From an uncultured Prevotellaceae bacterium (GTDB taxonomy: Bacteria; Bacteroidota; Bacteroidia; Bacteroidales; Bacteroidaceae), in contig ONSR01000038.1 in assembly GCA_900320565.1 (NCBI GenBank), positions 1 to 62,478 of the forward strand: a stretch of 62,478 nt of DNA. Reading direction: 5' to 3'. Shown here piece by piece: positions 4,859 to 59,032 of the stretch. The position numbers were made by a program, and so were the translations under genes. Below the pieces are notes generated by a model. That model was not told the DNA's origin. It saw only the letters and a program-made list of their open reading frames with translations, and ran no database searches. Each line of letters opens with the position of its first letter. Positions within the stretch are counted from its first letter, which is position 1.

Positions 4859-4920
4859 CATTAGGGAGGGTTCCCCAACGCCCTATAGGGGAATGGCAAA
4901 CGCCCTATAGGGGAATGACA
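4859..4920. repeat. 22-bp periodic palindrome array, CCCTATAGGGG type, two to three units
   Basis: Cores begin at 4881 and 4903, exactly 22 bp apart, each followed by AATG. A weak unit precedes them near 4859. The same core and spacing recur at 14616-14714 and 27034-27110. Confidence 0.8.
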
Positions 4921-5300
4921 ATTTCGGCAGTGTACCTTGGGTGACTCCTCTGTAGTAAAATTGGGCAAAAACGCTGTTAAAATGGGCGTTTTTGGCAAGC
5001 GAAGTTGTCAATCCAGTACTTTTCTCTTGGATTTTCGGTTTGTAACATATTGATTATCAGTACAGACTCGTTTTAAGCGCATTTCTCCTGAAAAATGAGC
5101 AAAACATCGTCCGTGGACATTTTCGGCGATTTTACAAGATTCTCGCAAAATCAAGATGTAAGCAAATCGGCGTATTTACTTACATTTTGCCAAACCCAGA
5201 CCCTTGGAACATGAAGTTCCAGAACACTCTTGGAGTCAGTTCCTCGCACTTCTCGCCTGACTGCACGCCCCTCATATTTCTTATTAAGGACAGAATATTC

Positions 5301-14484: not shown

Positions 14485-14610
14485 GTATAGATCCTTGCCA
14501 AAAGGTACAGGCCTTTGACGAAGAAGATAATACCTATTGGGAGACAAAACACCACCTCTTCAGAACAGAGGTACTGGCATGCTTTGACAGACACATACAG
14601 GAGCGTCGTT

Positions 14611-14720
14611 CAACCCCCTATAGGGGAAAAGCAAACGCCCTATAGGGGAAGCGTCATCCCCCTATAGGGGAAGCGTTATTCCTCTATAGGGGAAGAGCCA
14701 CTCCTCTATAGGGCGTTTGC
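14611..14720. repeat. 22-bp periodic palindrome array, CCCTATAGGGG type, five units
   Basis: Core starts are 14616, 14638, 14660, 14682 and 14704, a perfect 22-bp spacing. The last two have CTCTATAGGG. Spacers between cores differ in sequence but not in length. Confidence 0.88.
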
Positions 14721-27011: not shown

Positions 27012-27132
27012 CTGTTAAGGGGAACCTGAAACGCCCTATAGGGGAATGCTCATTCCTCCATAGGGGAGTGACACTTCCTCCATAGGGGAATGGCTCTTCC
27101 CCTATAGGGGAGTGAATCACCCCCATATAAAA
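27012..27132. repeat. 22-bp periodic palindrome array, CCCTATAGGGG type, four good and two weak units
   Basis: Core starts are 27034, 27056, 27078 and 27100. Degenerate units lie at 27012 (CTGTTAAGGGG) and 27122 (CCCATATAAAA). Spacing is exactly 22 bp throughout. Units 2 and 3 carry CTCCATAGGGG. Confidence 0.88.
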
Positions 27133-37896: not shown

Positions 37897-39606
37897 TTAA
37901 ATCATCAGCAGCCATTCGTAAGCCTCAGCACTTGTGGAGCATTTCCAACCATGCGCCTTCTGAAACAATCGGGTGCACGTATTTGTCACCGCCGCTTGGC
38001 TATGCGCTGTCAGTACGCCCACTTCTGTCTTCGTCAACCCCATACGCAACAACAGGAAACAATGCATTTCTGTTTCGGAATAGTTCGGCAATAGCTTGCT
38101 GAACCGATGCAGTAGCGTTGCATCTCTTTCAGAAAGAAGAACTTTTACTTGTTCATAGTCTTCTTTTGTAGCTATACCATTATTCCTTGCCTTATCTAAC
38201 AAAGTCTGGAAAGAAGAAGTTGTACAGTATCGCTGCCGGAGTGTTTTAGAGTTTGTACGCACATGCTTCCGCAGTTCGTCCAATTTCCCTGACCAGGTCA
38301 AGACCTGTACCCTCGTATCTTCAGTCTCTTTCTCTGCCTTTTCTATTTTCTCCTTTAAACTTATGCTCTCCGCCTCATCCTTTGATCTCGCTAATTCCTC
38401 ACGTAGCATTTCAAGGTTGTTCTCTTGTTCACCCAAATTGGCATTAGCCCGTTCCAGTTCCAACTCAACACTGGCAATCCTTTGTTTATACCACAAGTGA
38501 AGGTAAAAGAAGAAGAACACTGTGCTTACAATAGCAACCACCAAGAAACTCCAGAGGTATAAAGCCTTCCGACGATTCTCTTGCAACAGCAACTCCTTTT
38601 GGTCGTTCTCCTTTTGCAAGCGAGTATAGTCATACATCTCATTTAGATTCTGTAAATTCTTTGACAGCTTTTCCTGATAGGAACTGTCCACAGCGTCACA
38701 TTGCAAAGGAGCATACTTGCAGACAGAATCCATCTGGCCTTTCTGTTCAAACAGCAAACGAAGTCCACGGTAAGCTGCTTGGCGGTTATTCCAGTCCGCG
38801 TCCTCTGTCAACTCCTTTCTATAGAAGAACTCTGCAGAGTCCAGTTTGCCCAAGGCAGCCAACACCCTGCCCTTCGCGTAGTAATATATAGGAAAAGAGC
38901 TTTCATGCGTTTTGGTATTTACCTGGCCGCTGTGCTGCTCATAGATAGAAAGCAACTTTGCTGCATCCGTCACTCGTCCCAACTCTATATTTGCCAAAAC
39001 ACATGTGCAGAGCCTTCTTGTGCCATAAGCATACACTCCCATTCGTTTGCTCTCTTCCAACAAGTCCCAACATTCATTGGCAATGGTCTTATAGTCGCTG
39101 AGAGCATAATGGCCACCAAGGTTCCACCATTTGGCTGTCACCATAAAAAGAGTATCCTTTGCAAGAAGTGCGTATTTATAACAATTCTTGTTATCCTCTA
39201 TTGCCTGGTTATATATTCCTTGCAGATACATGATGTCACTTTTCTGCCCATAAAGACGTGCTAATATGTCGTAGCGGCAGTTTTCATCGGCCAAATCTGC
39301 TGCGTTAATCCCATTCAGGAACGCCTCCAAAGCCTTTGGCGCTTCGTGCAAATCACGATATGCACTGCCCGACAGATAGTAGGCCTCCATCAGTTCGTTG
39401 CTCGTCCCGTGCTCTTCGTAGTACACCAATGCCCGCCGCATCAGGCTGTCATCCCGCTCGGTCAAAGGGATGTATGCCATGTTCCGCCCTCGCACCTCAT
39501 CCATGATGCCGGAGGCTTTCTCTCTGCTTATAACGGACGGACGAGACGACTGCTTGCATGCAAAGATGCATATCAGTAACAGACATACAATGAAGAGATG
39601 TTTCAT
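37897..39606 (-). CDS. TPR membrane regulator with C-terminal LuxR-like HTH
   Basis: The 569-residue protein has a signal sequence with a possible lipobox at Cys17 (ICIFAC), several TPR repeats (about 60-310), one transmembrane helix (about 350-370, SFLVVAIVSTVFFFFYLHLW), a coiled coil (about 375-435) and a C-terminal helix-turn-helix (about 500-565, SETEMHCFLLLRMGLTKTEV then AAVTNTCTRLFQKA). This one-component design is common in Bacteroidales: a periplasmic TPR sensor with a cytoplasmic DNA-binding domain. It is divergent from the island at 39790 onward, with both promoters inside the 183-bp gap, so it is a good candidate regulator of the island. Confidence 0.8.
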   Translation of the reverse strand: MKHLFIVCLLLICIFACKQSSRPSVISREKASGIMDEVRGRNMAYIPLTERDDSLMRRALVYYEEHGTSNELMEAYYLSGSAYRDLHEAPKALEAFLNGINAADLADENCRYDILARLYGQKSDIMYLQGIYNQAIEDNKNCYKYALLAKDTLFMVTAKWWNLGGHYALSDYKTIANECWDLLEESKRMGVYAYGTRRLCTCVLANIELGRVTDAAKLLSIYEQHSGQVNTKTHESSFPIYYYAKGRVLAALGKLDSAEFFYRKELTEDADWNNRQAAYRGLRLLFEQKGQMDSVCKYAPLQCDAVDSSYQEKLSKNLQNLNEMYDYTRLQKENDQKELLLQENRRKALYLWSFLVVAIVSTVFFFFYLHLWYKQRIASVELELERANANLGEQENNLEMLREELARSKDEAESISLKEKIEKAEKETEDTRVQVLTWSGKLDELRKHVRTNSKTLRQRYCTTSSFQTLLDKARNNGIATKEDYEQVKVLLSERDATLLHRFSKLLPNYSETEMHCFLLLRMGLTKTEVGVLTAHSQAAVTNTCTRLFQKAHGWKCSTSAEAYEWLLMI

Positions 39607-39789: not shown

Positions 39790-40182
39790 ATGAAGGCAAA
39801 CGCACTTTTCACAAGAACAGCATTTCTTGCTGCCACATTATTAATTATGGTATCTGCTCGCGCATGGGAACCACTTCCCCCAGTGGCTGGCGTTAGAATC
39901 TTTTTCTCTTTGGCTGATATCCGTCCAGAACCTCTTCATCCTCATGCTCCCGTCGTGGCTCCACAAGTGGAACAGGTAGGTCATACACTCTATTTCCTCG
40001 ATGAAACCGAACTTTTTCTCAACATCTACTCTGTGGATGAAGAAGAGAATGAGACTTTGGAGTATCAGACTGCCGTATCATCATCTACGACATCAGTCCA
40101 GTTGCCAGATGACCTTTCAGGCACTTATATCATAGAAGTTGTTGTGGGAGGATTATATTTTCGAGGCGAAATAGAACTCTAA
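39790..40182 (+). CDS. DUF3244-like secreted protein
   Basis: This 130-residue protein has a signal peptide to about residue 25 (VSARAW) and a single small beta-sandwich domain ending SGTYIIEVVVGGLYFRGEIEL, the pattern of DUF3244 proteins in Bacteroides and Prevotella. Similar proteins often accompany C10 peptidases or TPR regulators; the regulator is the divergent neighbour here. It is the first gene of the island, 18 bp before the DUF6734 gene. It has no duplicate in the decayed second cassette. Confidence 0.65.
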   Translation: MKANALFTRTAFLAATLLIMVSARAWEPLPPVAGVRIFFSLADIRPEPLHPHAPVVAPQVEQVGHTLYFLDETELFLNIYSVDEEENETLEYQTAVSSSTTSVQLPDDLSGTYIIEVVVGGLYFRGEIEL

Positions 40183-40200: not shown

Positions 40201-41607
40201 ATGCGTATTGTGCAGACCTTTTGGACGGCAGGACGCAACCCTCTGGAACATAGCTTCGGATGGTTGCGTCCCGAGTACAACCTCATGTCGTGGGCATTGA
40301 GCTGCCTTAGCCTCCGTGAGCATTACGACGAGGTGGCACTCTACACCGATGAACAAGGAAAGCATGTGCTCATAGATCTCCTGCACTTGCCCTACACCGA
40401 AGTGCATGTCGTATATGACGAGCATCTCTGCCTGCCGCAGCATTGGGCATACGCAAAAATAAAGACCTATTCGCTACAGACAAAGCCCTTCCTGCATGTC
40501 GATGGAGATGTCTATCTGCCCAAGCCTGTATCAGAGGATATTATGGATGCGCCGCTCATTGCACAGAACAGGGAGATTGGAACAACCTATTATCGGAAGA
40601 TAATGGATAGACTCTTCGAGGGTTCGGTTATAGAACTTCCAGAGTATTTAGAGGTAGGGCTGAGGGAAGAGTCTATCGCTTCCTATAATATGGGACTGTT
40701 CGGAGGCAATGATATGGCATTCATTCATTCTTATTGTAAGGAGGCACTTGCTGTCTGCGACATGAACAAAGCTACATACCTGAATGGAAACTTTAATTTG
40801 CTCTTTGAGCAGATGCTTTTTGCAGATAAAGCCAAAGAAGAAAATATACCCGTGAGTACCATATTCCCTCAGGTATTCAACGACAATGGTTATACTGTTG
40901 CAGGCTTTTGCCAACTGAGCAGGTACGAAGAGAAAGGATTCTTTCATCTGCTGGGTGGGCATAAAAGGAACATGGAAGTAATAGAGACCTTCGTTGAAAC
41001 TTTCATGACTTTGTATCCCGACTACTATAAGCAAATCCTGTCCCTTTATCCTCATCATTACCAGAGAGGTATTACAAAAGGGGGGGTCTGTTTACTAATG
41101 ACAAACACTGACATACCTATCAAAGCATTTATTGATTTCTTGAACAAGGCAGAAATGGATTGGAGCACACTTTCTTGGGAAGACCTGTTGGAAGTGGAAC
41201 GGAGATGTATTAATGGTAAAAGGCTTTCCTTCCACAAAGATAAGTTAAACGACATCTGCGTCTGTTGCAACCCCTATCTGAAGTGCTTTGATGTACTGGA
41301 CTCATGGGACGAGGAAGCAATACGGATAATGAGAAAACGATTGTCATGCAAAGAAGATGCTCCGATAGAGAAGGTTGCAGTCGTTCCTATGCTTTCATTC
41401 AAAACGAGGAAAGAGTATGTCCTGTATGAATTAGAGCATCAAGTTCTGGAACAACTGAAGGGCTGTTCGATGAAAGTCTATGAATTATTGAACAAACTTA
41501 TCGCCAAAAACAGTTCAGAAGAGATGCGTACTCTTTGGCTGACAGAAATACAAATACTATTAAACGAAGGATTATTAATCCCTTATAACAATTTTATTAA
41601 TCATTAA
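40201..41607 (+). CDS. DUF6734 protein, glycosyltransferase-like
   Basis: The 468-residue cytoplasmic protein begins MRIVQTFWTAGRNPLEHSFG with WLRPEYNLMSWALSCLSLRE, the DUF6734 signature. It has a probable DxD nucleotide-sugar motif, D101-G-D103 in LHVDGDVYLPKP, followed by SYNMGLFGGND, as in GT-A folds. The last 45 residues (KVYELLNKLIAKNSSEEMRT, then LLIPYNNFINH) form a separate helical piece that is kept almost exactly in the decayed copy at 45300-45473. It probably modifies a peptide or glycan made by the island; this is inference. GC content is lower than in flanking housekeeping genes. Confidence 0.65.
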   Translation: MRIVQTFWTAGRNPLEHSFGWLRPEYNLMSWALSCLSLREHYDEVALYTDEQGKHVLIDLLHLPYTEVHVVYDEHLCLPQHWAYAKIKTYSLQTKPFLHVDGDVYLPKPVSEDIMDAPLIAQNREIGTTYYRKIMDRLFEGSVIELPEYLEVGLREESIASYNMGLFGGNDMAFIHSYCKEALAVCDMNKATYLNGNFNLLFEQMLFADKAKEENIPVSTIFPQVFNDNGYTVAGFCQLSRYEEKGFFHLLGGHKRNMEVIETFVETFMTLYPDYYKQILSLYPHHYQRGITKGGVCLLMTNTDIPIKAFIDFLNKAEMDWSTLSWEDLLEVERRCINGKRLSFHKDKLNDICVCCNPYLKCFDVLDSWDEEAIRIMRKRLSCKEDAPIEKVAVVPMLSFKTRKEYVLYELEHQVLEQLKGCSMKVYELLNKLIAKNSSEEMRTLWLTEIQILLNEGLLIPYNNFINH

Positions 41608-41619
41608 AACGTTATTATT

Positions 41620-42516
41620 ATGGCAGCAAAAGGATCAAGAAAGAACCCCTACACTCTGAGTGAATATAATGGAATTGGTTCAGACAGTTGGACTGGAGGA
41701 TGGGTACAAGAAAGCGAGAATTATGTCATTTATAGGAACAGGTTTAAAACCGTGACCTATACTGGTTTTTGCACGAAGGGCAATCCTGTACCCGGTGACC
41801 TCTACAACGAGATGACGCAAAATCACATCTGGCTAGGAGGATGGGTATTGTTTGGGACAATTAAAAAATATGTTGATTCAAATGACGACGAATATAATAG
41901 CACTCTGGGAACTCAAAGTGATCCCTGCTCTATGTTTATATACAATGAAATGATTTCAAATGGAATCTGGGAAGGAGGATGGGTACAAGATTCTAATGGA
42001 CAGGCTCATTATATGCAAAATTATAATTTAATATTGGATTTCGGTTCCGGCTGTGGCTGCGGCTGCGGCTGCGGCTGTGGATATGGTTCTGGATATGGTT
42101 CTGGAGCATACAGTGGTTCTTGTCCTGCCTACGGTTCTGGTAGCGGTAGTGGCGAACTTTCGTCCGAAGGGTTCCCTATCTGTGCTGGCAATTATAAAGT
42201 CGGAGGTATTGTGGATCGCAGCCAAAACAACAACAATAATAATAACAATGGTAATAATTATAATTCGGTCGGTGAATTGCATATATCTTGGACAGAAGGA
42301 AATACTCAGGGGCAAAACGATTTGTCAGAAGTAACTGTTTCAGCGAAAATGACCAATTATAGATATTGTGTCCTTCAGAACAACTTATATACGACATGGG
42401 TAGCTCCATATGAAGTAGCAATTCATGGTACCATTGTTTTTCAACGCGACAGTGAACAGCTCGAATATTCAATAGATGGAAGATACACTATCCCAATGGA
42501 GTATTATCAAATATGA
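41620..42516 (+). CDS. GGW-repeat protein with a Cys-Gly run, unknown function
   Basis: The 298-residue protein has no signal peptide. Three repeats end in WxGGWV (residues 24-29, 71-76, 117-122), each preceded by a Y-x-E-(Y/M) helix such as IYNEMISNGIWEGGWV. Then follow a run with five Cys alternating with Gly (145-153), a Gly/Ser/Tyr linker, a poly-Asn stretch (203-212) and a C-terminal beta-rich domain (from about 216, VGELHISWTEG to TIPMEYYQI). The layout suggests a leader region, a modified or cross-linked spacer and a passenger domain. Its stop overlaps the next start (ATGA). A shortened copy is at 45486-45665. I do not know the family function. Confidence 0.6.
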   Translation: MAAKGSRKNPYTLSEYNGIGSDSWTGGWVQESENYVIYRNRFKTVTYTGFCTKGNPVPGDLYNEMTQNHIWLGGWVLFGTIKKYVDSNDDEYNSTLGTQSDPCSMFIYNEMISNGIWEGGWVQDSNGQAHYMQNYNLILDFGSGCGCGCGCGCGYGSGYGSGAYSGSCPAYGSGSGSGELSSEGFPICAGNYKVGGIVDRSQNNNNNNNNGNNYNSVGELHISWTEGNTQGQNDLSEVTVSAKMTNYRYCVLQNNLYTTWVAPYEVAIHGTIVFQRDSEQLEYSIDGRYTIPMEYYQI

Positions 42517-43389
42517 TTATCCGCAATATTATATTTATAATAATACTGCTATTCGCAGACTTGTCTGTTTCCAGCCAAGAGTTTCCTGACTCCGCAAAGC
42601 TGATGGTGGAGATGGAAGACTCTATCAGCGGGATGTCCATCGTCCCTATCAAGCATCCGAAGGAACTGCTGGACAGCATCGTAGAACAGGTCGTACTCGA
42701 TTTGCAGCAAAAGCGTGTTCGCTGCAAGTATGCAGACCTCTGGCTTACATACTTCCCGTCCGACCACTTCCAGTTGCATCATTCATGCTGTTGCAAACAT
42801 ACAGATTCATGCAACAGGAGAAGGAGAGGAATTTCGCTTTGATGGGCCACGTCGCCTAAGAAACCTCAGAGACACAACTTATGCGTATTATGATTTGAAG
42901 GACTATCTGGTGGAGTATTATATGTTGAGAATGGTGCAGACTGATTCCGAGAGGACAGTAATTCAAGGCTTGAAATATTTGGTTAGTCTGCATCATATAA
43001 AAGTGTACAGCATCAGCGATGAAAAGGGCAGAGTCGTATATCGTGTGGACTTCTCTCCGAGGAAACATATAGGATATGGCTATTGTCGTGTGGACTTCTC
43101 TCCGAGGAAACATATAGGATATGGCTATTGCGGCTCAAAATTTAACGGTACGGCATATTTCGACAAGAACTTCCATATTCAACAAATCGAAACAGACAAA
43201 ATCGGGCCCACCTCCTATGACATTACGGGCAGACAGGATAAGGATGGCCTCCTCTCCCACATTATCTGCCAACACTATCGGATGGATTTCGATGAAGTCG
43301 ACGGCACAACTGTTGTCAAACAGATTGATTCCACTCTTTCATTAGATAACCAAATAACGGGAAAGTATACAGTTCAAAGGCTTCCATGA
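42513..43389 (+). pseudogene. Exported GTAYFD-type protein, copy 1, broken
   Basis: The first frame (42513 to 42842) starts with a signal peptide MIIRNIIFIIILLFADLSVS and EMEDSISGMSIVPIKHPKEL. It loses frame near 42735-42760, where about 8 bp are missing compared with copy 2. The second frame runs from about 42740 to 43389 with HHIKVYSISDEKGRVVYRVD, GTAYFDK and QDKDGLLSHIIC. A perfect 45-bp tandem duplication at 43041-43130 repeats RVDFSPRKHIGYGYC. The intact relative is at 43428-44267. Confidence 0.8.
43041..43130 (+). repeat. 45-bp tandem duplication within copy 1
   Basis: Two identical 45-bp units (43041-43085 and 43086-43130) encode the same 15 residues twice. Copy 2 has only one unit. 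Confidence 0.95.
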
Positions 43390-43427
43390 TAACATTTGTG
43401 GCAAGGAATCAGACAAGAAATAAAACA

Positions 43428-44267
43428 ATGAAACGATTACTACCCTTCATATTCCTGCTTTGGGCGATACAGGCTAATAGCCAAGTGCCGTTAGACTCCG
43501 CTTACTGGGACACAGAGATGGAGGATTCTATCAGCGCGATGTCCATCGTCCCGATTAAGCATCCGAAGGAACTGCTGGACAGCATTATAGAACAGGTCAT
43601 ACTCGATTCAAAGCAAGAGCCTGTCCGCTGCATGTATCAGACAATGTACACCACAGACCTGCATACTTCCAGTCCGGCCACTTCCAGATGCATTCTTCAT
43701 GCTATTGCAAACATAAAGATTAAAGCGACGGGAAAAGGAGAGAAATTCCACTATGAGGGGCCAATACTCCCGAAAAACCTTAACGACACGGCTAGGGTGT
43801 ATTTTGTCTTGAGGGATCTCCTTGAGAGTAGCTTATTGATATGTATGCAGGAAGATAATTACTTTTATACGGTGCCTGTATTTCATGAATTTAAGAGATG
43901 GATGAGTATGCATCATATAAAAGTGTACCGCATCAGCGATGAATCTGGCAGGGGCGTATATCGTGTGGACTTCTCTCCAAAGAAAAACATAGGATATGGC
44001 TTTCATGGCACAAAATTTGATGGCACAGCGTATTTTGACAAAAAGACACTCCGCGTGATACAAATCAAGACTGACCTGATTCAACCCTCATCTTTTGACG
44101 TCTTAGGAAGACAGGACAAAGATGGCCTCCTCTCCCACACGGTTTGTATTCGCGAACAAACTGCTTTTGAAGAAGTCGGCGACACGCTTGTCGTCAAACA
44201 GGAAGAAAGAACACTTTTTGTTGACGGCTATTTGACGTCGAAGTATCAAGCTCAGAGACTTCCATGA
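43428..44267 (+). CDS. Exported GTAYFD-type protein, copy 2, intact
   Basis: The 279-residue protein has a signal peptide to about residue 19 (WAIQANSQ). Features shared with its relatives are EMEDSISAMSIVPIKHPKEL, HHIKVYRISDESGRGVYRVD, GTKFDGTAYFDKKTLRVIQI and a C-terminal YQAQRLP. The GTAYFD-type beta segment resembles secreted Bacteroides proteins of unknown function. I chose ATG 43428 because it begins a proper signal peptide; an upstream ATG at 43386 would add 14 charged residues. No enzyme motif is visible. Confidence 0.68.
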   Translation: MKRLLPFIFLLWAIQANSQVPLDSAYWDTEMEDSISAMSIVPIKHPKELLDSIIEQVILDSKQEPVRCMYQTMYTTDLHTSSPATSRCILHAIANIKIKATGKGEKFHYEGPILPKNLNDTARVYFVLRDLLESSLLICMQEDNYFYTVPVFHEFKRWMSMHHIKVYRISDESGRGVYRVDFSPKKNIGYGFHGTKFDGTAYFDKKTLRVIQIKTDLIQPSSFDVLGRQDKDGLLSHTVCIREQTAFEEVGDTLVVKQEERTLFVDGYLTSKYQAQRLP

Positions 44268-44290
44268 TATAACAAATAAACCTGACTCTT

Positions 44291-44335
44291 ATGAAACACG
44301 CACGGTTTCTGTTCTCAATTCTTCTTCCCCTGTAA
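44291..44335 (+). other. Tiny ORF before the Stealth gene
   Basis: MKHARFLFSILLPL then stop. A matching tiny ORF (46598-46636, MKHILFLFSFFL) precedes the Stealth remnant in the second cassette. This is either a remnant of a lost gene or a short leader peptide; both sequences are preserved at the same position. Confidence 0.35.
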
Positions 44336-44360
44336 TACAAGCTAAGCATTCGCAGAATCT

Positions 44361-45263
44361 ATGCCCATAGATTATGTAATACCGTTTGTGGATTGTAGCG
44401 ACGGGAACTGGCTCGTTGAGTATAAGAAGTATGTATCTGCCAAGATTGACTGGAGCAATAACGCAACGCGTTTCCGAGACTGGGAGACACTGCGCTATCA
44501 ACTTCGCAGCATAGAAAGATACATGCCTTGGATAAGGGACATCTATATAGTAATGTCTGTTTCTGAAAGTCAAATCCCTAAATGGCTGAACACACAACAT
44601 GAAAGAGTACACATTGTATGGGACTGGGAAATAGTGCCCCAAGAATATCTGCCTATCTTCAACTCCAACGTCATTGACCTGTACATTCCTCACATAGAAG
44701 GACTGAGCGAACATTACCTGTATGCTTGCGACGATTACATCGTTATGAGGAGTTTAAAACCAGAGGATTTCTTTACAGAGAATGGGATTAAGTTGAAAAT
44801 GGGTAAATACAAGCTTATGGATTGGACTTACACTCGGACTATCATTAACTCGAACCTGCTAATCTGTCCTCAGCATGTCACTAAGATAGATACTTATTTC
44901 CTTGCACTTTATTGTGACCATGCTATTGTGCCACATTTAAAGTCAGAAAACTTGAAAGTGATGGAAATGTACCATCAAGAGATAGAAGAGTCCCTTTCAA
45001 GATTCCGAGAAAGCAAGAACCTAACTTGGCTCATCTATCCGTTAAGTCTCATGAAGAATGGATTGCTTCAGAAAGGAAACATCAAAACGCGATTCAGCGC
45101 ACTTCGCGATGAGAATAGTATCCGAGCCCTTGATTTTGCAGGTTGTGATGTGATAGCACTCAATGATGAGTACCGCGATAATTTCCTTGTTGGCAAATCT
45201 CATCTAATAGGCCGTTTGGAAGAAGTCCTGCCTTGCAAGTCTGAGTTTGAAAAGCAAAGATAG
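44361..45263 (+). CDS. Stealth-family phosphotransferase
   Basis: The 300-residue protein has the Stealth conserved regions: CR1 IDYVIPFVDCSDGNW; CR2 FRDWETLRYQLRSIERYMPW, IRDIYIVMSVS, FNSNVIDLYIPHI and LSEHYLYACDDYIVMRSL; then weaker CR3/CR4. Stealth enzymes transfer hexose-1-phosphate units when making phosphodiester-linked polysaccharides. In this island it is the fourth cassette member, so it may decorate a surface glycan or the GGW-repeat protein; this is inference. A truncated relative lies at 46661-46722. Confidence 0.85.
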   Translation: MPIDYVIPFVDCSDGNWLVEYKKYVSAKIDWSNNATRFRDWETLRYQLRSIERYMPWIRDIYIVMSVSESQIPKWLNTQHERVHIVWDWEIVPQEYLPIFNSNVIDLYIPHIEGLSEHYLYACDDYIVMRSLKPEDFFTENGIKLKMGKYKLMDWTYTRTIINSNLLICPQHVTKIDTYFLALYCDHAIVPHLKSENLKVMEMYHQEIEESLSRFRESKNLTWLIYPLSLMKNGLLQKGNIKTRFSALRDENSIRALDFAGCDVIALNDEYRDNFLVGKSHLIGRLEEVLPCKSEFEKQR

Positions 45264-45299
45264 CACACGAGCCTCATTTCTTTCATTCTTTTGGCAAAA

Positions 45300-45473
45300 G
45301 GTTTGGATGGAACAACCTATTATAACGTGAGTTCGATGAAAGCCTATGAATTATTGAACAAGCTTATCGCCAAAAATAGTTCAGAAGAGATGCGTACTCT
45401 TTGGCTGACAGAAATACAAATACTATTAAACGAAGGATTATTAATCCCTTATAACAATATTATTAATCATTAA
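45300..45473 (+). pseudogene. DUF6734 gene remnant (second cassette)
   Basis: The sequence from about 45332 to 45473 is nearly identical to 41466-41607 (the last 45 codons of the DUF6734 gene). A fragment TGGAACAACCTATTAT at about 45307 matches the earlier part at 40576. The internal sequence is deleted. Confidence 0.85.
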
Positions 45474-45485
45474 AACGTTATTATT

Positions 45486-45680
45486 ATGGCAGAAAAGGTT
45501 CAAGAAAGAATCCCTACACACTAAGTGAGTTTAACCATTTGGGAAGTAGCTGGACTGGAGGATGGGTATTGTTTGGGACAATTAAAAAGTATGTTGACTC
45601 AAATGACGGCGAATATAATAGCACTCTGGGATCTCTAAGTAACCCCTGCTCTATGTTTATGTTCCTTCAGAATACCACCA
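45486..45680 (+). pseudogene. GGW-repeat gene remnant (second cassette)
   Basis: Homology to 41620-41940 is clear. One base is missing near codon 3, causing an early stop. Repeats 1 and 2 have been fused at their shared GGATGGGTA. Most of the C-terminal part is gone except a CCTTCAGAA stretch. Confidence 0.85.
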
Positions 45681-46538
45681 ATGACTAATCACACTATCTT
45701 CTTTTCGACTCTCCTACTCTTGGCTGACTTAGTCGTAGCGCAGGAACCTCAGGAGTTCTCTTCCCCGAACGAGAAGAAGGACTCCCTGAGTTCACTTTCC
45801 GTTATTCCACTCAAATCGGCACAGGCAAGCAAGGTGCTAAGACTGGTCATAAAGCAATATGACAAAGACATGAATAAAATCAATGAAAAATATAAATATC
45901 ATGTTAGTGCAACATTCCGACATGATTCGTTAGCACCATTCACAGCCAGGTGTGTTGTCTCGCCTTATGCCGGCATGGATTTTTTTGATAACATCTCTGT
46001 TTTTACAGAAAATTTCGTCTACGACGGACAATACGACTTGACTGAAGTAGACAGCATCTTAATTCAACGATATCTTAAGCATTTTGCACGGATGAGTCCT
46101 ACCTATGTGCCCATGATTTACTCTTTACATAGCGGAGGGTCTTTAGGCCTAAACATGAAGAATCTACTCTATCCACTTGTGGAGTATGGCATGACACAGC
46201 AGTATTACAATTATTCTGTTTCCCGCATCGAAGATTCTGCGGGCAGAAGAGTTTACCGCATTGTATTTAGCAGGAACAAAAAGAAAAAGCAGTATATGTA
46301 TGCCGGCAATGTATATAATGTAGGCGAGGTGACTGGTACGGCATATTTTGACGGTAAGACTATGCGTCTGACACAGTTCAAAGGCAGGGCACGCCGGCCA
46401 ACCGACAGATATGATATCAATATAAGGTATCGAAACGACTACGAGGAGAAGAACGATACTCTTGTGCTCAAGCAAACCATAATTGTGTGGGAAGCGGGTC
46501 ACACGGAAATACAAGCACGGGTCACACGCCTAGAATAA
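45681..46538 (+). CDS. Exported GTAYFD-type protein, copy 3
   Basis: The 285-residue protein has a signal peptide to about residue 20 (ADLVVAQ). The family features are DSLSSLSVIPLKSAQASKVL, SVSRIEDSAGRRVYRIVFSR and EVTGTAYFDGKTMRLTQFKG, ending ARVTRLE. It is diverged from copies 1 and 2 and is the only intact gene of the second cassette, which hints that it is kept for a reason. The function is unknown. Confidence 0.68.
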   Translation: MTNHTIFFSTLLLLADLVVAQEPQEFSSPNEKKDSLSSLSVIPLKSAQASKVLRLVIKQYDKDMNKINEKYKYHVSATFRHDSLAPFTARCVVSPYAGMDFFDNISVFTENFVYDGQYDLTEVDSILIQRYLKHFARMSPTYVPMIYSLHSGGSLGLNMKNLLYPLVEYGMTQQYYNYSVSRIEDSAGRRVYRIVFSRNKKKKQYMYAGNVYNVGEVTGTAYFDGKTMRLTQFKGRARRPTDRYDINIRYRNDYEEKNDTLVLKQTIIVWEAGHTEIQARVTRLE

Positions 46539-46660
46539 CTCTTCATCATCACTAATAATCTTTATATTAGATTCAGAAAGGCATTAGTGTCCACATTATG
46601 AAACATATACTGTTTCTGTTCTCATTTTTTCTGTAAAACAAATTAAACATTCGAAAATCT

Positions 46661-46722
46661 ATGCCTATAGATTATGTAATACCATATGTGAACTGTAACG
46701 ACATGAACTGGTCTATAGAGCA
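46661..46722 (+). pseudogene. Stealth gene remnant
   Basis: MPIDYVIPYVNCNDMNWSIE matches the start of the Stealth protein at 44361, and the homology stops abruptly near 46722. The next sequence is the ROK gene terminator, so this marks the right edge of the island. Confidence 0.85.
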
Positions 46723-46734
46723 TGTAATAAGAAG

Positions 46735-46775
46735 AGCCCCTTCGCCTAATGAGCGAAGGGGCTGTTTGATTTTTG
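46735..46775. terminator. Bidirectional terminator, island edge / ROK kinase gene
   Basis: AGCCCCTTCGC pairs with GCGAAGGGGCT around a 7-nt loop; a T-rich tail follows on the plus strand. Confidence 0.85.
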
Positions 46776-58731: not shown

Positions 58732-58901
58732 AGAAAAAAGTGGTAAATAAGAAAATGAGAGAATAAGAAAAAAAGAGAATAAGAAAACTTTTATTGCAGA
58801 GAAGAAATGCACGACCAAGGCATAAACACATTCTGTCTCTACCACAACAAAGGAAGAACTCCAATGAATCAAGCAAGCAACAAGGTAATAGCTCATATTC
58901 A

Positions 58902-59032
58902 TGTCCGGTATATGTCCGGTACTTGTCCGGTACTTGTCCGGTATATGTCCGCTTTTTTTACCGGACATATACCGGACATATAGGGAACATATAGCGGACA
59001 ACGATAGGAGAAACATAGGAGCTACGCAGGAG
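58902..59032. repeat. 11-bp periodic array with inverted halves
   Basis: TGTCCGG begins at 58902, 58913, 58924, 58935 and 58946, exactly 11 bp apart. After a T7 tract, the inverted unit CCGGACA (or variants) begins at 58961, 58972, 58983 and 58994. ATAGGAG/CAGGAG continues at 59004, 59015 and 59026. The two halves can form a hairpin with a perfect 15-bp stem around the T tract. It lies in the divergent gap between comEC and metY. Confidence 0.88.

What the first reader, a model, noticed from the sequence alone, without database searches (positions are those of the whole stretch)
40201..46722. Tandemly duplicated four-gene accessory cassette, one copy decaying
Order in copy 1: DUF6734 glycosyltransferase-like, GGW-repeat/Cys-Gly protein, GTAYFD exported protein (two genes, one broken), tiny ORF, Stealth phosphotransferase. 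Copy 2 repeats the order: DUF6734 tail, shortened GGW gene, intact GTAYFD copy 3, tiny ORF, Stealth start. The set combines two sugar/phosphosugar transferases with a repetitive protein lacking a signal peptide and several exported proteins, next to a TPR/HTH sensor-regulator. I know of no described system with this composition; a glycosylated or phosphoglycosylated exported peptide system, or an antagonism system with diversifying copies, is possible.
Basis: partly seen in the sequence, partly recalled or inferred. Interest (0 to 1): 0.85.

Follow-up and report, generated by a model that had tools for sequence, protein, structure and literature searches.

The report
Peptide-maturation-like locus with sugar transferases
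A gut bacterium carries a locus in which putative sugar-transferring enzymes sit beside an unusual glycine-, serine- and cysteine-rich protein, an arrangement that in relatives resembles loci making chemically modified peptides; if the enzymes do decorate that protein, it is a new kind of bacterial sugar-coated protein.

Summary
The genes are real, but "tandem duplication of a four-gene cassette" is only partly right. Copy 2 is a mosaic of relics (91-92% identical DUF6734-tail and GGW-start pieces, an 80% Stealth start) around an old paralogue (GTAYFD copy 3, 27% identical to copy 2).

The core recurs. Of 17 full-length DUF6734 genes in the genus, 15 have an ORF with at least three consecutive Ser/Cys-Gly dipeptides within 3 kb; none of 572 ORFs in 60 other sugar-enzyme loci does. 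Elsewhere in the phylum, 7 of 13 DUF6734 loci have a double-glycine-leader-like ORF (background 30 of 120 windows), some with LanB/LanC or radical-SAM genes. The C-terminal domain resembles PqqD-type RiPP recognition elements (weak to moderate evidence). Three sister loci keep the frame with GT14 or GT25 enzymes instead.

Best reading: a RiPP-like locus where DUF6734 docks on the WxGGxV protein and modifies its Ser/Cys-Gly run; Stealth (3 of 17 loci) is an optional second transferase. Sugar transfer, acceptor and export are unproven: transferase fold tests failed, the genome has no C39 exporter hit, the GGW protein no classical leader, and GT14 sister precursors lack the run. New variant of a known kind.

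The parts
37897..39606 (-). TPR / coiled-coil / HTH-type membrane regulator, divergent from the locus
   Evidence: TPR_2 E 0.002 only, below cut-off; relatives in 9 of 17 DUF6734 stretches, window included; the HTH is recalled from the family type, not scored
39790..40182 (+). small exported protein (130 aa, signal-peptide-like N-terminus), DUF3244-like
   Evidence: no Pfam hit itself; same-place relatives match DUF3244 at E 0.011, 2e-5 and 2e-4, all below that family's cut-off; relatives in 11 of 17 DUF6734 stretches
40201..41607 (+). DUF6734 protein, 468 aa: putative sugar transferase domain (aa 1-281) plus C-terminal extension
   Evidence: PF20508 E 8e-94; HxDxD motif in 25 of 25 sequences
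40495..40509 (+). HVDGD (DxD-type motif, putative metal/nucleotide-sugar site)
   Evidence: the meaning of DxD is established knowledge of GT-A enzymes, not tested
41371..41583 (+). PqqD/RRE-like winged-helix domain at the C-terminus of DUF6734 (aa 391-461)
   Evidence: confident part of the model; Foldseek list with RRE structures, weak E; hhalign to PqqD E 1.6e-4, probability 50
41620..42516 (+). GGW / Cys-Gly protein, 298 aa, putative acceptor protein; no signal peptide or double-glycine leader seen
   Evidence: no family hit above a curated cut-off
41620..42030 (+). three WxGGWV modules (about 45 aa each; helix plus two strands in the model)
42043..42162 (+). Cys-Gly / Ser-Gly repeat stretch (aa 142-181), disordered in the model; putative modification zone
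   Evidence: (pLDDT below 50)
42166..42513 (+). C-terminal beta-rich domain (aa 183-298)
   Evidence: no PDB match better than E 0.41
42513..43389 (+). GTAYFD exported-protein gene, copy 1, split over two frames, with an internal 45-bp tandem duplication (43041-43130)
43386..44267 (+). GTAYFD exported protein, copy 2, one open frame
   Evidence: relatives with a CarbopepD_reg_2 domain in L004 and L009
44361..45263 (+). Stealth-family putative sugar-phosphate transferase (CR2 region)
   Evidence: PF11380 E 5e-36
45331..45568 (+). relic of the DUF6734 tail and GGW start
   Evidence: 91.3% to 41465-41706
45550..45660 (+). relic of the second GGW module, ending before the Cys-Gly stretch
   Evidence: 92% to 41829-41939
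45681..46538 (+). GTAYFD exported protein, copy 3, one open frame, distant paralogue
   Evidence: 27% to copy 2
46596..46711 (+). relic: signal-peptide-like start plus Stealth start
   Evidence: 80% to 44289-44411
46735..46773 (+). terminator-like hairpin followed by T-rich stretch, end of the locus
   Evidence: sequence shown; read by eye, no terminator scan was run

Best explanation
The region is a RiPP-like (recognition-guided) protein-modification locus. The DUF6734 protein is a cytosolic sugar transferase whose C-terminal PqqD-like domain binds its partner, the WxGGxV or Ser/Cys-Gly protein encoded next to it, and modifies the flexible Ser/Cys-Gly run of that protein. The Stealth protein, where present, makes a second (sugar-phosphate) modification. 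The modified protein then acts outside the cell together with the exported CarboxypepD/GTAYFD proteins, most likely in competition with other bacteria, under control of the divergent TPR/HTH regulator. The GGW and GTAYFD genes expand and decay, which explains the relics. Shown: the recurring gene neighbourhood, the association of the run with DUF6734, and RiPP-type neighbours of DUF6734 elsewhere. Supported but weak: the recognition-like fold. Inferred: sugar transfer, acceptor residues, export, and biological role.
For: 15 of 17 full-length DUF6734 genes of the genus have an ORF with at least three consecutive [SC]G within 3 kb; the two misses are L005, whose neighbour has three WxGGWV modules but a longest run of two, and L049, at a contig end; 0 of 572 ORFs in 60 Stealth/GT14 stretches have it. 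Co-occurrence 16/6/6/172 of 200 genomes. Outside the genus, 7 of 13 DUF6734 loci examined have a double-glycine-leader-like small ORF within 3 kb on the same strand, against 30 of 120 background windows; of these L249 has LanC (E 3e-35), LanB (E 3e-136, other strand) and a second leader peptide on the other strand (lanthipeptide leader, E 8e-12), and L246 two proteins matching radical-SAM maturase models; L248, without a leader ORF, has a C39 ABC exporter (E 1e-29). C-terminal domain: block pLDDT 78-93 for residues 311-460; hhalign to 24 PqqD sequences score 26.6, E 1.6e-4, against at most 12.4 for 30 column-shuffled versions, 13.3 reversed, 15.6 against MarR_2, and 17.8 for MarR_2 against PqqD; 7 of 37 Foldseek rows are RRE-bearing structures, the top one 3dee, named an RRE in a passage of PMC12710340. 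Sister loci keep regulator, small exported protein, transferase, double-glycine precursor and, where the stretch reaches, an MG2/CarboxypepD-type protein, with GT14 (L162, L169) or GT25 (L102, with one more gene between). In another genus L262 (same stretch as L256) joins a double-glycine leader, the WxGGYV module and a CHAP-like domain in one protein, beside a TIGR04157-like glycosyltransferase (E 3e-60, 204 bits, cut-off 400).
Against: No test showed that the DUF6734 N-terminal domain is a glycosyltransferase: model pLDDT below 50 there, hhalign against GT32, Stealth and GT14 all negative, no PDB sequence match. No PqqD hit in Pfam; Foldseek E-values are 0.06 or worse and the aligned ranges were not shown. 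The long DUF6734 forms outside the genus do not align to PqqD, and only L241 aligns to the genus C-terminus. Precursors of the GT14 sister loci (L101, L152, L157, L162, L169, L170) and the L256 protein have no Ser/Cys-Gly run (longest 0-1), so the run goes with DUF6734, not with the whole locus type. This genome has no Peptidase_C39 hit, and in the genus C39 is no commoner with DUF6734 (4 of 21) than without (20 of 118). The GGW protein lacks a classical leader. 6 of 13 phylum loci had no leader-like ORF: L243 (contig end near), L248, L251, a prophage-like one (L252) and two eCIS-like ones (L253, L254); the leader motif is lax, 25% of background windows contain it.
Confidence: 0.45

Rival explanations
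1. A secreted-effector (antagonism) locus with diversifying copies: WxGGxV proteins are effectors with interchangeable C-terminal domains and neighbouring immunity-like exported proteins; the transferases only modulate them or are incidental.
For: C-terminal domains vary: CHAP in L157 (E 1e-9) and L256 (E 6e-5, just below cut-off), C39-like by eye in L042/L043 (best Pfam E 0.14 for L043, none for L042), beta-rich in the window. A protein family (seed L007:10743-11576) recurs near WxGGxV, Stealth or DUF6734 genes or relics in L096, L108, L110.
Against: Of 10 WxGGxV or Ser-Gly proteins scanned, one reached a Pfam cut-off for an enzyme domain (CHAP, L157), and it does not explain the regular presence of DUF6734 with the Ser/Cys-Gly run. 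It does not exclude the best explanation; it concerns what the product does.
Confidence: 0.2
2. A surface-glycan island: DUF6734 and Stealth build a polysaccharide, and the GGW and GTAYFD proteins are unrelated surface proteins.
For: Stealth proteins are known capsule enzymes (recalled); 38 of 139 genomes of the genus carry Stealth, and the 40 further Stealth stretches fetched hold no ORF with a Ser/Cys-Gly run. L007 has two GT32-type genes as well.
Against: DUF6734 is followed or closely preceded by a WxGGxV or Ser/Cys-Gly protein at 16 of 17 genus loci, and stands near double-glycine peptides, LanB/LanC or radical-SAM proteins elsewhere. No further polysaccharide gene was seen in the window's own locus.
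Confidence: 0.15
3. A decaying remnant without function in this strain: frameshift, relics and lack of exporter mean the system is dying here.
For: One split gene and several relics; no C39 hit in the genome; genome 89% complete.
Against: DUF6734, GGW, GTAYFD copies 2 and 3 and Stealth are open frames, and L004, L005, L261 show similar expanded arrays with mostly full-length genes.
Confidence: 0.12

Closest known systems
RiPP gene clusters of Bacteroidota with double-glycine leaders, C39 exporters and glycosyltransferases (BGC3 and BGC9 in PMC10352776; NCBIfam TIGR04149 and TIGR04157)
   Same: Sugar transferase beside a precursor; TPR or HTH regulators reported there (section read); at L262 the same WxGGYV module behind a double-glycine leader beside a TIGR04157-like transferase
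   Different: In the window there is no double-glycine leader and no C39 exporter hit in the genome; the putative substrate is a 298-aa protein; the transferase is DUF6734
RRE-glycosyltransferase fusions flagged by RRE-Finder (PMC7470986; PF00535 fusions in PMC12710340)
   Same: A putative transferase with a PqqD/RRE-like domain
   Different: DUF6734 is not named in the main text of PMC12710340 and is another Pfam family than PF00535; here the RRE resemblance is weak to moderate
Glycocins (sublancin, glycocin F; peptide S/O-glycosylation)
   Same: Idea of sugar on Cys/Ser of a ribosomal product beside its transferase (recalled; starts of abstracts listed)
   Different: Small disulfide-bonded peptides with their own transferase families; no such precursor here; no sugar shown
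Serglycin-type Ser-Gly repeat proteoglycan cores
   Same: Ser-Gly run; the Pfam Serglycin model picks the repeats of 5 of 10 proteins scanned, all below its cut-off
   Different: Animal proteins; resemblance is compositional, not homology
Stealth capsule phosphotransferases
   Same: Stealth_CR2 region
   Different: The 40 further Stealth stretches of the genus carry no ORF with a Ser/Cys-Gly run

Membership tests
RiPP biosynthetic locus | precursor with recognisable leader followed by a core | tested here: not met
   no leader in the window protein; double-glycine-leader-like ORFs in sister loci L102, L105, L162, L169, L170 and phylum loci L241, L242, L244-L247, L249
RiPP biosynthetic locus | modifying enzyme with a leader-binding RRE domain | tested here: inconclusive
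   hhalign E 1.6e-4, probability 50; Foldseek E 0.06 or worse; no Pfam hit
RiPP biosynthetic locus | C39 peptidase exporter or other leader protease | tested here: not met
   0 hits for PF03412 in this 89%-complete genome; other proteases not searched
RiPP biosynthetic locus | ribosomal product carrying a modification | not testable with these tools
   needs mass spectrometry
Glycosyltransferase (GT-A type), for DUF6734 | conserved DxD motif | tested here: met
   HxDxD in 25 of 25 sequences
Glycosyltransferase (GT-A type), for DUF6734 | GT fold or sequence relation to a known GT family | tested here: inconclusive
   N-terminal model pLDDT below 50; hhalign to GT32 (2 sequences), Stealth (18) and GT14 (18) negative; no PDB sequence match at E 1
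Stealth family | conserved region CR2 | tested here: met
   E 5e-36; no other Stealth region was listed at E 1 or better
   no match in 50,697 phage records, no PHROGs hit for the GGW protein; one IMG/VR contig carries the cassette (L261), with no phage gene recognised by eye in the 6.8 kb held
Glycocin | small two-helix, disulfide-bonded precursor with its glycocin transferase | not tested
   feature recalled; NCBIfam gave no bacteriocin hit for the window protein, which at 298 aa is far larger

The most novel reading that the evidence does not exclude
A bacterial counterpart of Ser-Gly proteoglycan cores: an RRE-guided transferase family (DUF6734) loads sugars onto Ser/Cys-Gly runs of leaderless WxGGxV proteins that reach the outside without a Sec signal or a C39 exporter, the WxGGxV module itself being the recognition or export signal; the same locus frame is reused with other transferases (GT14, GT25) and other precursors.
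Probability: 0.2. Interest if true: 0.85.

Novelty: new variant of a known kind. Interest (0 to 1): 0.6.

Why it matters
It would give a function to DUF6734, a Pfam family of unknown function for which the open library held no paper by name, and link it to RiPP-type modification in several Bacteroidota lineages. It would add a protein class (WxGGxV modules plus Ser/Cys-Gly run) to the products of gut and rumen Bacteroidaceae, and it shows a locus frame in which the sugar-transfer enzyme and precursor are swapped while the regulator, small exported protein and CarboxypepD/MG2 partner stay. It makes a direct test possible: one enzyme, one neighbouring protein, one mass measurement.

Tried and rejected
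Phage or tail-protein origin: rejected. One IMG/VR contig (L261) holds the cassette; within its 6.8 kb no phage gene was recognised, so the nature of that contig is open.

Clean four-gene tandem duplication: rejected, because the pieces differ in age.

PDB matches of the GGW model were all at E 0.41 or worse. Hits of the GGW profile to PDB sequences (best E 3e-5) align mostly to the Cys/Ser-Gly stretch, many in fusion constructs; ignored as compositional.

NCBIfam FEA1_rel_lipo (E 0.001, 17.6 bits against a cut-off of 250) and Pfam SpoIISA_toxin on Stealth (E 0.007, below cut-off) were treated as compositional or chance.

C39 exporter as route of export: not supported.

WxGGxV module as phylum-wide: rejected; found in 3 of 395 genomes including this one, the third at E 8e-4.

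Full report
WHAT IS THERE. The window is contig 19 of a 2.63-Mb, 89%-complete genome of unnamed species. Its six named relatives are Bacteroidaceae or Prevotellaceae metagenome-assembled genomes; four of the six titles name ruminant gut samples (buffalo, yak, roe deer twice), one (RUG837) is rumen by recall, one (L005) names no host. The locus runs from the divergent regulator (37897-39606, minus strand) over a small exported protein (39790-40182), DUF6734 (40201-41607), the GGW protein (41620-42516), two GTAYFD exported-protein genes (the first split over two frames) and Stealth (44361-45263) to a relic part (45331-46711) around a third GTAYFD gene, and ends at a terminator-like hairpin. The relic part has pieces of different age: 91-92% for the DUF6734-tail and GGW pieces, 80% for the Stealth start, but only 27% protein identity between GTAYFD copies 2 and 3. 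Relatives show the same habit: L004 has two GGW genes and five GTAYFD-type genes plus one CarboxypepD form, L261 has DUF6734-GGW-GTAYFD-GGW-GTAYFD, and L005 has a second GGW-type gene after Stealth (read by eye). The window is one stage in a birth-and-death array.

THE GGW PROTEIN. Three modules of about 45 residues (consensus KG..NPY...EY..M..G.W.GG.V.....Y; W, G, G, V invariant in 26 of 26 module copies aligned, but the copies were picked by that very motif) precede a disordered Cys-Gly/Ser-Gly stretch and a beta-rich domain. No Pfam or NCBIfam cut-off is reached. Module number and C-terminal domain vary between loci; CHAP in L157 (E 1e-9) and, just below cut-off, in L256 (E 6e-5). In an even draw of 395 Bacteroidota genomes 3 match the module, including this one; the second is in another genus of the family.

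CO-OCCURRENCE. PF20508 hits 22 of 200 relatives, the GGW profile hits 22 of 200, 16 share both; Fisher p 3e-14. The genomes are related, so p is indicative only, and several weak GGW hits (for example G159, G174) are probably compositional. In the genus 21 of 139 genomes have DUF6734. All 17 full-length genes were examined; partial matches were left out. 15 have an ORF with three or more consecutive [SC]G within 3 kb, one (L005) has a WxGGWV neighbour with a longest run of two, one (L049) lies at a contig end. Of the same 17 stretches 11 hold a relative of the small exported protein, 9 a GTAYFD relative, 9 the regulator, 3 Stealth (window, L005, L007) and 1 two GT32-type genes (L007; E 3e-17 and 7e-18); several stretches are cut. 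In 60 control stretches, 40 around Stealth genes and 20 around GT14 genes, 0 of 572 ORFs have such a run; with a looser criterion (six or more xG in a row) 1 of 572 does, a WxGGYV protein in L157. The 40 Stealth stretches cover the places not already held, except one partial match; the 20 GT14 stretches are part of the 54 places. The Stealth-linked Gly-rich protein of L104 was known beforehand and is not among the 60; its longest [SC]G run is two, its xG run eleven.

DUF6734 ELSEWHERE. In an even draw of 395 genomes of the phylum, 16 have PF20508, this one included. I fetched 14 stretches and examined 13 for leader peptides, leaving out L250, whose gene has stops; weak matches in G391, G462 and a second place of G242 were not fetched. 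Seven of 13 have a double-glycine-leader-like small ORF within 3 kb on the same strand, against 30 of 120 background windows; the motif is lax, and some hits are spurious ORFs. The best cases by neighbourhood: L242 and L245 with Cys-rich peptides directly beside DUF6734; L241 likewise; L246 with two proteins that match radical-SAM maturase models (below the equivalog cut-offs; one above the SPASM-domain cut-off); L249 with LanC on the same strand, and on the other strand LanB and a lanthipeptide leader (E 8e-12). L248 has no leader ORF found but a C39 ABC exporter and a VKOR protein. Against the pattern: L252 lies among prophage-like genes and L253/L254 among eCIS-like genes (my reading), L251 shows nothing, L243 ends near the gene.

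THE C-TERMINAL DOMAIN. AlphaFold gave no usable model for residues 1-257 but a confident one for about 311-460. Foldseek found nothing at E 0.001; of 37 rows seven are structures of RRE-bearing proteins: 3dee, 6m7y A and B, 5lq4 A and B, 6jx3 B, 4wd9 B. That 3DEE is an RRE is stated in a passage of PMC12710340; for the others it is recalled or suggested by the title, and the aligned ranges were not shown. hhalign of the last 100 residues (17 sequences) with 24 PqqD sequences from relatives (one of 25 dropped as too short) gives E 1.6e-4, probability 50, score 26.6; 30 column shuffles reach at most 12.4, the reversed alignment 13.3, a MarR_2 alignment 15.6, and MarR_2 against PqqD itself 17.8. 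A first run with some PqqD rows from the wrong strand gave 20.4 and is superseded. The MarR_2 control rests on 11 of 12 rows, of which one (L223) is probably out of frame. Pfam finds no PqqD there, and a PDB sequence search with the profile gives only two winged-helix regulators and a kinase, best E 0.018. Long DUF6734 forms outside the genus do not match PqqD; L241 alone matches the genus C-terminus (E 9e-5). I rate the RRE reading likely but unproven.

SISTER LOCI. The frame regulator - small exported (DUF3244-like) - transferase - precursor - MG2/CarboxypepD-type protein recurs with other transferases: L169 with a GT14-type enzyme (methyltransferase-like C-terminus, below cut-offs) and a precursor with a double-glycine motif; L162 the same but cut soon after the precursor; L102 with a VKOR/C39 protein, a GT25-methyltransferase fusion, a precursor whose leader ends in ISGG and continues in Gly-Ser repeats (run of 13), and an outer-membrane-barrel protein; L170 with a radical-SAM enzyme, GT14 and a Cys-rich precursor (the regulators of L162 and L169 by eye; MG2 in L169 only at E 0.02). 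WxGGYV proteins also stand near GT14 genes in L101, L152 and L157. The GT14 precursors have no Ser/Cys-Gly run, so if each transferase has its own acceptor, the run belongs to DUF6734 and perhaps GT25. In another genus L262 joins a double-glycine leader, one WxGGYV module and a CHAP-like domain in one protein, beside a TIGR04157-like glycosyltransferase (204 bits, below its cut-off of 400) and genes that read by eye as C39 ABC exporter, HlyD, TolC-like and LanC-like proteins. This is the strongest single link between the module and exported, RiPP-type proteins. There the module lies after the leader; in the window family the leader is missing, so the module is not a classical leader.

EXPORT. 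The window genome has no PF03412 hit. In the genus 24 of 139 have one; 4 of 21 DUF6734 genomes against 20 of 118 others. The GGW protein therefore leaves by another route, or stays inside, or the exporter lies in the missing part of the genome; this is the largest gap in the story.

MECHANISM, STEP BY STEP. (1) DUF6734 binds its neighbour through the PqqD-like domain: inferred from fold and neighbourhood. (2) It transfers a sugar: inferred from the DxD motif (25 of 25) and from its replacement by GT14/GT25 enzymes in sister loci; profile comparison with GT families failed. (3) The acceptor is the Ser/Cys-Gly run: inferred from its regular presence beside DUF6734. (4) Stealth adds a second group: inferred from its family. 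(5) The product acts outside the cell, perhaps on cell walls or neighbours: inferred from CHAP members and exported partners.

LITERATURE. DUF6734 by name: 0 papers in the library. Other searches. Seen: PMC10352776 (passages and one section), PMC12710340 (abstract, outline, passages), PMC7470986 (one passage). The others in the lists were seen as listings with the start of the abstract only. RRE-glycosyltransferase fusions were already noted there as not present in known classes, which is why I call this a new variant of a known kind. Nothing can be said about papers outside the open library.

Noticed in passing
L252, L253, L254 (around the DUF6734 matches): Divergent DUF6734 proteins among prophage-like genes (L252) and, as tandem pairs, among eCIS-like genes (L253, L254), by eye; so the family has non-RiPP contexts too.
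   Followed up: partly
L261 (IMG/VR contig of 63.8 kb): A contig classed as viral carries DUF6734-GGW-GTAYFD-GGW-GTAYFD in open frames; no phage gene recognised in the 6.8 kb held, so mobile element or misclassified bacterial DNA.
   Followed up: partly
L170:5860-8233: Radical-SAM protein next to a 75-aa double-glycine precursor with CSCSG motifs, within the same regulator/small-exported/GT14 frame.
   Followed up: partly
L007:10743-11576, L096:7128-8114, L108:9019-9843, L110:7859-8662: An exported protein family recurs near WxGGxV, Stealth or DUF6734 genes or relics; possible immunity protein.
   Followed up: no
window 14610-14713, 27034-27129, 4877-4921: Interspersed 22-bp tandem units containing CCCTATAGGGGAA, palindromic, apparently intergenic.
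   Followed up: no
window 58900-59000: Two 11-bp tandem arrays, CATGTCCGGTA and its near reverse complement, facing each other.
   Followed up: no
L248:8749-10455, L102:10367-11914: VKOR-thioredoxin fusion proteins (with a C39-like N-terminus in L102) at two sugar-transferase/peptide loci, suggesting disulfide chemistry on the products.
   Followed up: no
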